From Candidatus Pacearchaeota archaeon (GTDB lineage Archaea > Nanobdellota > Nanobdellia > Pacearchaeales > GW2011-AR1), in contig JAGVXB010000003.1 in the NCBI GenBank assembly GCA_018303995.1, forward strand, positions 1-33,321: a DNA stretch of 33,321 nucleotides. Direction: 5' to 3'. The position numbers and the translations under genes were made by a program. Shown here one piece after another: positions 2,758-6,866 of this stretch; within the stretch, counting starts at the first letter, position 1; every line of letters begins with the position of its first letter. The notes below the pieces were generated by a model, which was given only the letters and a program-made list of their open reading frames with translations, was not told the origin of the DNA and did not search any database.

Positions 2758-3072
2758 GTGAGTCGGGTAGCTAACTCCGAAGGTGTCTTTCAATAGACAA
2801 GGATTTTAATGAATTCTCCTTTGAGGAAGGTCCGGACATCGATTAAAGCGACCACTTGAAAGGGTGGCTGTCGCGAGATAGAGCTCCGCAACAGAAACGA
2901 CACCGCTCTTCCGGAGCAATGAACTTTGCAGGAAGCTAAGAAGGAAGAGATAGGATGAAACGGGCGACTTCGCTGATGCAACCGCTACAACCGCGGGCTT
3001 AGAAAGATGTTAGCACGCAGCGTTCGTCTGCAAAGACGAGCTTCGACAAAATCTGGCCTATGCCTGACTCAC
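2758..3072 (+). ncRNA. rnpB: RNase P RNA (archaeal)
   Basis: P1 helix GTGAGTCGGG (2758) with CCTGACTCAC (ends 3072). CR-I-like GAGGAAGGTCCGGAC, CR-II ACAGAAAC, CR-III GGATGAAACGGGCG, CR-IV AGATGTTAGCACG, CR-V ACAAAATCTGGCCTATG, all in the expected order. Confidence 0.93.
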
Positions 3073-3123
3073 ACTTTTATTTTTATTAGAAATATTTATT
3101 TAGTCATTTTATTTATTGTTTTT

Positions 3124-3408
3124 ATGGTCAATTATTCTTCGGCTGAAAAGAAGATAATAGATTTTGCCAGAAATTATCCTGCAATAACTGGATTGTCTTT
3201 AGGATGTTGTCCGGAGGAATCTAAATATAGAGTTTACTATTTTCTTATTGATGGTGAAATTCTAGATAGAGATAGAAGTGATGCTATATCTAGATTGGAG
3301 ATTGATTTGACGCAGAGGAAAAAACCGTCTGAAAATTTTGCACTTGCTGAGTGGCCTGCGGACGCTTTTAACCGGACCTTTTTGGGAGAAGTTATTTGGA
3401 GAAGATAA
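3124..3408 (+). CDS. hypothetical protein (start trimmed out of RNase P RNA)
   Basis: The track ORF 3007-3408 starts inside RNase P RNA. The internal ATG at 3124 (MVNYSSAEKK...) lies after the RNA. Confidence 0.55.
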   Translation: MVNYSSAEKKIIDFARNYPAITGLSLGCCPEESKYRVYYFLIDGEILDRDRSDAISRLEIDLTQRKKPSENFALAEWPADAFNRTFLGEVIWRR

Positions 3409-3429
3409 AATTTATAGGCTTTAAAAACA

Positions 3430-3437
3430 TTTAAAAG
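3430..3437 (+). promoter_or_regulatory. TATA-box-like element for the tRNA-half gene
   Basis: TTTAAAAG centred about 27 nt upstream of GGTCCCG at 3461. Confidence 0.5.
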
Positions 3438-3460
3438 TGGTTTTTCTATACACTTCTGTT

Positions 3461-3535
3461 GGTCCCGTAGCTCAATGGGAGAGCACACGATTATCTTGCA
3501 TGAGTAAGATGATGTGAAACTGAAGGCTGCAAGAG
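3461..3535 (+). tRNA. orphan tRNA 5'-half-like gene (acceptor strand + intact D-arm, no T-arm or 3' acceptor); candidate trans-split tRNA 5' half
   Basis: GGTCCCG-TA-GCTC-AATGGGA-GAGC-A matches tRNA positions 1-26 with consensus A14, R15, G18, G19 and A21. It is followed by hairpin-forming sequence (CACGATTATCTT/AAGATGATGTG; alternative TCTTGCA/TGCAAGA). No GGTTCRANTCC or CGGGACC seen downstream before the CDS at 3601. 3' end is uncertain. Confidence 0.5.
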
Positions 3536-3600
3536 AGTTGAAAATTATGTTTATTTTCTAAGCCATAAATCTTAATAAATCCTTAATTCTTGACTTTGTT

Positions 3601-4074
3601 ATGAAAAGAGGGCTGAAACCATTGCCTGAACAAACGGCGATGGATTTAACATTTAAGACAATCCCATCAGGAAGAACGGTAGATATTTCACTGCAACTTC
3701 CCGTTGATACGGTATGGCAAATATCTAGAAGAAAAGATGGAATTTATTTAGCCCAAGATATTCATGAAACTGGGACTCTTGCTAATATCCATAGATTATC
3801 TACTCAATTAAGTAATGGAATATCTAATGTAAGCCCATTAAAGATAAGGGCTGGAGAGAATCATTTTGTTATTCCTTATAATAGTCACCATTATGTTGAA
3901 TGCTCGCCTGATGGACATACCTACTTTCCACTTGGAACTGCTGGAGATTTTATAGGCCCTAAGGAGTATTACTTTTGTTTAGGAAGAAGTTTATATTTTA
4001 TTCTTTCCCTAAAAGAAAGACCTCAAAAACCTAGGTTTTCTCAGTTAGAACTTTTTCCTGACCAAAGAGCTTAA
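3601..4074 (+). CDS. hypothetical protein
   Basis: 157 aa ORF; TATA-like TTAATAAAT about 25 nt upstream. Confidence 0.55.
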   Translation: MKRGLKPLPEQTAMDLTFKTIPSGRTVDISLQLPVDTVWQISRRKDGIYLAQDIHETGTLANIHRLSTQLSNGISNVSPLKIRAGENHFVIPYNSHHYVECSPDGHTYFPLGTAGDFIGPKEYYFCLGRSLYFILSLKERPQKPRFSQLELFPDQRA

Positions 4075-4523
4075 ACAAGAGGAATTTCTATCTCATTTAT
4101 TAAATTAATTTTTTTAGCAGTTCTGAAATCACAAGCCATTGCTTCACCTTTGATATTATTTGTTATCGGAACGATACTTAATTCTCTATTTTGAATATTA
4201 TTTTTTATATCAATTAATTGTGAAATAGATTGTCCTGCTTTAACTTTAATATTAATTTTTTCAAGATTTTTTTCTCCTTTTGACTCGTCTGAAATTATAA
4301 AATTAAATCCTTCTATGTCTATATTTCCGGCGTTATCGATTTCTAATATATAACCTTTGATGGTTTCGTATATTCCTGCCTTATAGATTACCTCACTGCA
4401 ATCTGGAGCAGGGGAAAGCTGGGTAATAAATTTATTTCCGAATGAAAATATTAGGAAAGCAATGCTTACAGTAATTGCTATTAGAAGTACTGTTGCAATT
4501 ATTGGAGAAACCCCTTTTCTCAT
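4071..4523 (-). CDS. archaeal type IV pilin-like protein
   Basis: N-terminus MRKGVSPIIATVLLIAITVSIAFLIFSFG is a typical archaeal class III signal/pilin N-domain. Overlaps the convergent gene by 4 nt. Confidence 0.85.
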   Translation of the reverse strand: MRKGVSPIIATVLLIAITVSIAFLIFSFGNKFITQLSPAPDCSEVIYKAGIYETIKGYILEIDNAGNIDIEGFNFIISDESKGEKNLEKINIKVKAGQSISQLIDIKNNIQNRELSIVPITNNIKGEAMACDFRTAKKINLINEIEIPLV

Positions 4524-5567: not shown

Positions 5568-6866
5568 ATGCAAAAGAAGGTTGAGTGGTATTTAGATTTT
5601 GTAGATTCTTCTTACAAGCCTGCTAAGGATGAATTGCTTGCATTATTTTATTTTGAACCTGCTTCTGGCATCTCAGTAAATGAAGCAATGGGAAGAATTG
5701 CGTCTGAAAGTTCTACTGGAACCTGGACGACTTTATTTAAGATGCCTCCAAGAATGAATAAGCTGAAGGCGCATGCTTATTCTCATTCTGGAAATATTGT
5801 AAAAGTTGCTTATCCTTTAGATTTGTGGGAAAAGGGAAACTGTCCGCAATTGCTTAGTGGAATTGGTGGAAATATTTTTGGAATGAAAGCCCTTGATAAT
5901 TTACGCCTGTTAGATATTCATTTTCCTAAATCTTACTTGAGGAGTTTTCCCGGACCTAGACATGGAATGCAAGGAATAAGAAAAATGATGAATGTTTACA
6001 ACAGACCGATGTTGGGAGCCGTGCCTAAGCCGAAGATAGGATTTACTGATCTCGAACATGCAGAGATAGGATTTGAAACGTGGATGGGAGGTTTTGACTT
6101 CGTTAAGGATGATGAAAATTTGACTTCGACTAATTTTAATAATTTTGATAAACGCGTTAAGTTAATTGCTAAGTTGCGCGATAAAGCAGAGCACGCTACT
6201 GGAGATAATAAAGATGCTTACATCAATATTACTGCTGAAACTCACGAGATGGAAAGACGCGCTAAACTTCTTCATGATTATGGTTTTAAGCATGCGATGA
6301 TTGATGTCGTTGTAACTGGATATTCTGGAGTTCAGACCTTACGCAATACTCTTGGAGATTATGGGATGGCGATTCATGCTCACCGCGCTATGCACGCTAT
6401 GTTTGATAGAAATCCTAAACATGGAATGTCTATGTATATGCTTGCGAAATTAATGAGGATGATTGGAGTAGACCAAATACATGCCGGGACTGCTGTTGGA
6501 AAGCTTACTGGAACTGCTGGGGAAGTAAAAAATATTAGCGATACTTTGCGCGATAAAAAAGTTACAGAGATTAAAAATGTTAGATTTGCTCAAGACTGGT
6601 TTGGGTTAAAACAAGCGTTTCCAGTTACGTCTGGAGGATTGCATCCTGGATTAGTACCTGATTTGCTTAAGATTTTCGGGGATGAGTGCGTCATGCTTGT
6701 TTCAGGAGGAATACATGGACATCCTAAAGGGACTAGAGCGGGGGCAATGGCTACACGTCAAGCTATTGACGCAATTCACGAGGGTGAGACATTGGAAGAA
6801 CATGCAAAATACAATTTAGAATTGAGAGAGGCGTTAGAAAAGTGGAGCCACTTGAGGCCTGTTTAG
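5568..6866 (+). CDS. rbcL: ribulose-1,5-bisphosphate carboxylase, large subunit, form III-type
   Basis: 432 aa with VPKPKIG, GGFDFVKDDENLTS (carbamylated Lys, Asp, Glu), HAHRAMHA, HAGTAVGKLTG (loop 6 Lys), VTSGGLHPG, SGGIHGHP; TGTW and GNIFG in the N-domain. Confidence 0.95.
   Translation: MQKKVEWYLDFVDSSYKPAKDELLALFYFEPASGISVNEAMGRIASESSTGTWTTLFKMPPRMNKLKAHAYSHSGNIVKVAYPLDLWEKGNCPQLLSGIGGNIFGMKALDNLRLLDIHFPKSYLRSFPGPRHGMQGIRKMMNVYNRPMLGAVPKPKIGFTDLEHAEIGFETWMGGFDFVKDDENLTSTNFNNFDKRVKLIAKLRDKAEHATGDNKDAYINITAETHEMERRAKLLHDYGFKHAMIDVVVTGYSGVQTLRNTLGDYGMAIHAHRAMHAMFDRNPKHGMSMYMLAKLMRMIGVDQIHAGTAVGKLTGTAGEVKNISDTLRDKKVTEIKNVRFAQDWFGLKQAFPVTSGGLHPGLVPDLLKIFGDECVMLVSGGIHGHPKGTRAGAMATRQAIDAIHEGETLEEHAKYNLELREALEKWSHLRPV

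What the first reader, a model, noticed from the sequence alone, without database searches (positions are those of the whole stretch)
3430..3535. Orphan tRNA 5' half with its own promoter and no adjacent 3' half: candidate trans-split tRNA
Seen: GGTCCCG-TA-GCTC-AATGGGA-GAGC-A reproduces tRNA positions 1-26 with an intact D-arm and D-loop invariants. A TATA-like box sits about 27 nt upstream. The sequence then diverges: no T-arm (GGTTCRANTCC) and no CGGGACC acceptor complement appear before the next CDS at 3601, nor did I see them elsewhere in the window. Established: Nanoarchaeum equitans and some Crenarchaeota encode tRNAs as separate halves joined through paired intervening sequences. Inference: this could be a split-tRNA 5' half in another DPANN-type lineage. 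The split position is unclear because the bases after position 26 do not give a convincing anticodon loop.
Basis: partly seen in the sequence, partly recalled or inferred. Interest (0 to 1): 0.75.

Follow-up and report, generated by a model that had tools for sequence, protein, structure and literature searches.

The report
Broken tRNA-Phe gene, 3' half missing
The finding is the front half (positions 1-37, anticodon included) of the phenylalanine tRNA gene of an uncultured Pacearchaeota-type archaeon, still at its ancestral site and carrying a removable mini-intron; its back half is nowhere in the assembly, so it is either a rearranged, broken gene or a trans-split tRNA whose partner was not sequenced.

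Summary
Window 3461-3489 plus 3519-3525 is the 5' part of tRNA-Phe(GAA), positions 1-37. The apparent divergence after position 26-30 is a 29-nt cis intron (3490-3518) at position 30/31 with a bulge-helix-bulge (BHB) core. Once spliced, the element matches relatives' tRNA-Phe at 28 of 29 bases over positions 8-37. It sits at the orthologous locus: RNase P RNA lies just upstream, and all three other same-genus genomes carry an intact, intronless tRNA-Phe there. Homology stops exactly after position 37. No 3' half was found in the window or the 887-kb assembly by acceptor, T-arm, leader-complement or covariance-model searches. The assembly has only 26 RF00005 tRNA matches, against 40 in a one-contig relative, and lacks recognisable tRNA-Asn and tRNA-Asp. 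Absence of the 3' half is therefore weak evidence. What follows position 37 resembles the 3' end of a repeated, covarying hairpin element found beside this genome's tRNAs. That suggests a local microhomology deletion, which I put first (about 0.5). A trans-split tRNA-Phe with an unassembled partner remains open (about 0.3). The hairpin element may be the more novel lead.

The parts
2758..3072 (+). archaeal RNase P RNA gene; upstream syntenic anchor of the tRNA-Phe locus
   Evidence: Rfam RF00373, 123 bits; also beside tRNA-Phe in G058, G103 and G123
3122..3408 (+). small ORF between RNase P RNA and tRNA-Phe; a similar ORF lies at the same place in G123
   Evidence: read by eye in the G123 sequence
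3430..3437 (+). TATA-like box TTTAAAAG, about 24-31 nt upstream of tRNA position 1; same motif upstream of tRNA-Phe in many relatives
3461..3489 (+). tRNA-Phe exon 1: positions 1-30 (acceptor 5' strand, D arm, first 4 nt of the anticodon stem)
3490..3518 (+). 29-nt intron at 30/31; BHB core CACA(3484-3487)/TGTG(3513-3516), bulges CG^A and AA^A, inner 7-bp helix 3491-3497/3506-3512
   Evidence: coordinates, shuffles; fold; same-position intron in G100
3519..3525 (+). tRNA-Phe positions 31-37, ACTGAAG, anticodon GAA at 3522-3524
3526..3549 (+). post-37 sequence resembling the 3' end of the tRNA-associated hairpin element (GAAGG..GCAAGAGAGT.TGAAAAT; the match begins inside the exon at GAAG)
3601..4074 (+). 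157-aa ORF with no relative in 143 family genomes and no Pfam family; lies where relatives have only a short gap after tRNA-Phe
4071..4523 (-). weak pilin-like ORF where synteny with G058 and G103 resumes downstream
   Evidence: tblastn; PF07790, E 0.007, below the Pfam cut-off

Best explanation
The element is the genome's own tRNA-Phe(GAA) gene at its ancestral site downstream of RNase P RNA. It gained a 29-nt BHB intron at 30/31 and then lost everything 3' of position 37 in a local rearrangement. Most likely this was a deletion joining GAAG of the anticodon loop to a GAAGG of a hairpin element that had been sitting directly 3' of the tRNA. Shown: tRNA identity, synteny, intron geometry, break at 37/38, and no 3' part in the assembly. 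Inferred: that a downstream hairpin element was the other breakpoint; that the 5' remnant can still be transcribed and its intron cut by the tRNA splicing endonuclease; and that the working tRNA-Phe comes from a gene in the unassembled part.
For: Intact, intronless tRNA-Phe lies next to RNase P RNA in G058, G103 and G123. Synteny resumes at the pilin-like ORF and the 4600 and 4885 ORFs. The spliced 5' part matches relatives' consensus at 28 of 29 positions of 8-37. No second tRNA-Phe 5' part and no 3' part occur in the assembly. The post-37 sequence aligns to 3' ends of the tRNA-flanking element (GAAGG-GCAAGAGAGT-TGAAAAT), and this site scores best in the whole window for two of nine copies. 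That element lies directly or closely 3' of tRNAs in this genome and directly 3' of tRNA-Phe in G125. Partial tRNA copies are common here: duplicate tails after Lys, Val, Ser and Ala. Two different tRNA-Phe genes occur in at least one relative, G006.
Against: No intact tRNA-Phe is in the assembly. tRNA-Phe is usually single-copy in relatives, so losing it would be lethal without an unseen copy. The break coincides exactly with the canonical split site, and promoter, D arm, anticodon and BHB are all undecayed. The match to the element's end is short and rests on a few copies: for seven of nine copies other window sites score as high or higher, and the covariance model did not report the site.
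Confidence: 0.5

Rival explanations
1. Trans-split tRNA-Phe. The 5' half (3461-3525, with its own cis intron at 30/31) is transcribed from its promoter with a leader starting at 3526. A 3' half encoded elsewhere pairs with that leader (CUGA of the anticodon loop with UCAG, then CUGCAAGAGAGUUG with its complement), and the splicing endonuclease and ligase join them at 37/38.
For: Ends exactly at 37/38, the commonest join site of known split tRNAs (PMC3218864, Table 1). Promoter, D arm, anticodon and BHB are intact. The leader start GGCTGCAAGAGAG is richer in G+C than the surrounding intergenic DNA. It is the only tRNA-Phe 5' part in the assembly. Relatives have unsplit tRNA-Phe with canonical introns at 37/38 (G022, G080, G057, G116), a plausible precursor state. 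Synteny breaking inside the tRNA is also what was described for split tRNA-Asp of Thermosphaera (PMC3218864).
Against: No 3' half or leader complement in 887 kb. No split form among the listed family members (list truncated). The putative leader resembles part of a repeat element.
Confidence: 0.3
2. Assembly or strain-mixture artefact: the contig joins tRNA-Phe 5' sequence to a different place, or represents a minor strain, and the true locus is intact.
For: Draft metagenome-type assembly in 38 contigs. Several contigs end at or near tRNA genes (C2, C16, C8, C1, C4), and tRNA flanks carry repeats.
Against: The junction sequence is unique in the genome: the only other hit, on C14, is coding and 88% identical. 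Flanking synteny is continuous on both sides. The shared microhomology is only 4-5 nt, too short for a usual k-mer misjoin (inference).
Confidence: 0.13
3. One cis gene with a second, very long intron at 37/38 and the 3' exon further downstream on the contig.
For: Long canonical introns exist in tRNA-Phe of G022 and G080 and in Leu and Ser tRNAs of this genome.
Against: No T arm or acceptor complement on either strand of the whole 33-kb contig. Known archaeal tRNA introns are 11-129 nt (PMC3218864).
Confidence: 0.03

Closest known systems
Split tRNAs of Nanoarchaeum equitans, Aeropyrum pernix, Thermosphaera aggregans and Staphylothermus (PMC3218864)
   Same: Promoter-bearing 5' half at an ancestral locus, ending at 37/38, with synteny broken inside the tRNA (as in T. 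aggregans tRNA-Asp).
   Different: No 3' half or complementary leader found; the 5' half also holds a cis intron; a Pacearchaeota-type lineage rather than a Desulfurococcales species, a Thermoproteales species or N. equitans.
Intron-containing tRNA-Phe of Candidatus Pacearchaeota archaeon Meg19_1012_Bin_278 (JAFCDB010000034.1; L053/L107)
   Same: Intron at the same 30/31 position with the same BHB strands (CACA/TGTG, AA bulge).
   Different: That gene is intact, with its T arm and acceptor 3' strand in place; its intron is 34 nt.
Partial tRNA fragments left by rearrangement or element integration (six in A. pernix and one in T. aggregans, PMC3218864)
   Same: A truncated tRNA next to DNA absent from relatives, in a genome with several tRNA tail copies.
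   Different: Integration usually leaves an orphan 3' end and restores the 5' half (general knowledge); here the 5' half is the orphan.

Membership tests
tRNA-Phe(GAA) gene | 5' half identity: acceptor strand, U8, D arm, anticodon GAA with Y32 U33 and purine 37 | tested here: met
tRNA-Phe(GAA) gene | T arm and acceptor 3' strand completing the cloverleaf | tested here: not met
   absent in window and assembly
archaeal BHB intron | 4-bp central helix with two 3-nt bulges whose excision restores the tRNA | tested here: met
   CACA/TGTG, CG^A and AA^A; exact restoration; same-position intron in G100
archaeal BHB intron | strict outer helix h' | tested here: inconclusive
   only two outer pairs possible (G3483-C3520, A3482-T3521), read from the sequence; a relaxed motif
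archaeal trans-split tRNA | separate 5' half with its own promoter ending at an intron position | tested here: met
   (promoter by motif and conservation only)
archaeal trans-split tRNA | partner 3' half elsewhere with matching acceptor | tested here: not met
   not in the assembly, which is visibly incomplete in tRNAs
archaeal trans-split tRNA | complementary leaders forming the junction BHB | tested here: not met
   no complement of 3527-3540 followed by tRNA sequence among the 30 contexts read of 112 pattern hits, nor with a combined leader-exon pattern
archaeal trans-split tRNA | mature joined tRNA detected | not testable with these tools
   needs RNA

The most novel reading that the evidence does not exclude
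A recently formed trans-split tRNA-Phe in a Pacearchaeota-type DPANN archaeon, whose 5' half also contains a cis BHB intron, so that one tRNA needs both cis- and trans-splicing, and whose splitting was caused by a tRNA-flanking hairpin element.
Probability: 0.28. Interest if true: 0.75.

Novelty: new variant of a known kind. Interest (0 to 1): 0.45.

Why it matters
If the partner exists, it would be a recent tRNA split with three intact same-genus genomes for comparison, in a lineage outside those listed in PMC3218864, and it would let one ask what causes splitting. If it is only a broken gene, it still shows a tRNA locus being rearranged beside a small tRNA-associated hairpin element. The covarying hairpin element has no Rfam match and is a separate lead.

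Tried and rejected
C/D-box sRNA reading of ATGATGT..CTGA: box spacing too short, and the CTGA is the tRNA anticodon loop (sequence inspection). Rfam below-threshold hits at 3491-3608: nematode or plant families, chance. Group I or other catalytic intron: no Rfam match in the window. 3' half in the window: scored scan of both strands, nothing. Orphan tails on C6 and C35 as partners: their acceptors can pair with GGTCCCG using G-U pairs, but they are copies of the Val-type and Lys tails beside them. C6:75639 TGGGATC hit: lies in DNA that reads as coding, no tRNA context. C14 junction-like hit: inside a coding frame. Viral contigs: no tRNA-Phe with this acceptor, no copy of the hairpin element, no relative of ORF 3601.

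Full report
What is there. The window is a whole contig (C36) of an 886,667-base, 38-contig draft genome with 82.75% estimated completeness. Relatives that share its tRNA-Phe belong to one family; one of them, G100, matches a genome titled Candidatus Pacearchaeota. At 3461 a tRNA 5' half begins, preceded by TTTAAAAG at 3430-3437. BLAST of 3425-3560 against the family hits tRNA loci, several across promoter plus 5' half. In all 19 relatives' loci read out, ARAGORN calls tRNA-Phe.

The missed intron. Comparing with those genes shows that the window reads ..GAGCACACG-[ATTATCTTGCATGAGTAAGATGATGTGAA]-ACTGAAG. Removing 3490-3518 restores positions 8-37 with 28 of 29 bases equal to the relatives' consensus. 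The intron has the core of an archaeal splicing substrate: CACA (3484-3487) pairs with TGTG (3513-3516), bulges CG^A and AA^A flank it, and there is a 7-bp inner helix. The outer helix is weak (two pairs). A BHB-compatible restoration occurred in 48 of 100,000 shuffles and at no other site in the window. G100 has an intron at the same 30/31 position, ending GTGATGTGAA|ACTGAAG, in an otherwise intact tRNA-Phe. Among the listed matches of the family-wide pattern search only G100 shows it (list truncated).

The break. Homology ends at 3525, after position 37. In G058, G103 and G123, all of the same genus, an intact intronless tRNA-Phe lies next to RNase P RNA, inverted in G103. Neighbouring genes are shared on both sides. 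In G058 the pilin-like gene starts about 110 nt after tRNA-Phe. Here about 545 bp intervene, with an ORF (3601-4074) that has no relative in 143 family genomes and no Pfam family. So this is the orthologous gene, interrupted.

Search for the 3' half. None was found by: an acceptor plus T-arm pattern with up to 3 mismatches; a wobble-tolerant version; predicted leader plus exon; every YGGGRYCA in the genome, contexts read by eye; a T-arm covariance model, which recovered the known tRNA genes apart from one Met tRNA, plus duplicate tails and a Tyr 3' exon; or the leader complement with G-U pairs (30 of 112 contexts read). A scored exon-2 scan of the contig gave nothing. The absence is weak evidence: only 26 tRNAs reach the Rfam cut-off against 40 in a one-contig relative and 27-40 in the same genus, and no Asn or Asp tRNA is recognisable.

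What follows position 37. Next to several tRNAs this genome carries a roughly 60-nt hairpin element with strong covariation: 10 of 17 pairs have compensatory changes and 0 of 500 shuffles reach the observed covariation score. It matches no Rfam family. In 260 kb of own-genome loci all model hits lie in loci fetched for tRNAs, apart from L128, which overlaps the L022 region. In G125 a copy lies directly after tRNA-Phe. The window's GAAGG-CT-GCAAGAGAGT-TGAAAAT aligns to the 3' ends of such elements and is the window's best site for two of nine copies, while other sites score as high or higher for the other seven. A deletion using the GAAG shared by the anticodon loop and the element would produce this junction, including its position at 37/38.

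Judgement. A truncated tRNA-Phe gene is my first choice (0.5), because the sequence after the break looks like a piece of an element that commonly sits 3' of tRNAs here. A trans-split tRNA is the main rival (0.3): the break is exactly canonical, nothing in the 5' half has decayed, and no intact tRNA-Phe is visible. Known split tRNAs are mostly joined at 37/38, some at 30/31 and 32/33 (PMC3218864, Table 1). An artefact is possible (0.13). Only reads, a closed genome or RNA can decide.

Noticed in passing
L001:295-354 (+), L024:403-461 (-), L026:1662-1721 (+), L002:1414-1472 (-), L013:1272-1331 (-), L003:1825-1883 (+), L006:1255-1364 (-); G125: L056:1568-1608: A repeated ~60-nt hairpin element beside tRNA genes, with conserved loops (CCGCAGCGAGT..CGAGCCTGT..GAGCAAGAG) and outer and inner stems that covary strongly between copies. 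No Rfam match; a possible new structured RNA or tRNA-targeting mini-element.
   Followed up: partly
L131 (C16, rc 1-220), L008/L167 (C30), L141 (C35:23400-23670): After Lys(ctt), Ser(cga) and Lys(ttt): an inverted copy of part of the T arm (for example CAGGGATTTGAAC), then two small hairpins (GAAGTGA..CAAGTCACTTC; CTCCAACTTT..AAGTTGAAG), then a direct copy of the tRNA tail (AATCCCTTCGGGGCCA). Looks like insertion of a small element that duplicates tRNA tails.
   Followed up: partly
L027 (G000:C29:4769-4837, minus): tRNA-like gene GAGCCCATAGCTC.. with a TAT-like anticodon whose T-loop region is interrupted by about 140 nt including the same hairpin, before ..CCTGGTGGGCTCA, which pairs with its acceptor.
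   Followed up: partly
L010/L126 (C6:92818-92842) and L003 (C35:23430-23454): Orphan tRNA 3' tails: a Val-type tail 43 nt downstream of tRNA-Val(gac), and a 32-nt tandem copy of the tRNA-Lys(ttt) tail.
   Followed up: partly
L201/L169 (G000:C30, around 5341, minus): tRNA-Tyr that appears to be interrupted by more than one intron, missed by the Rfam tRNA search; similar Tyr intron starts (CTGTAGA..GCGCAGACATTC..ATGAAGCG) appear in several relatives.
   Followed up: no
L024 (C8:464-637): tRNA-Leu(taa) intron of 90 nt that contains an internal tandem repeat of about 48 nt.
   Followed up: no
window 5568-6866: RuBisCO large-chain gene (Pfam), syntenic with over 80% identical copies in G058 and G103.
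   Followed up: no
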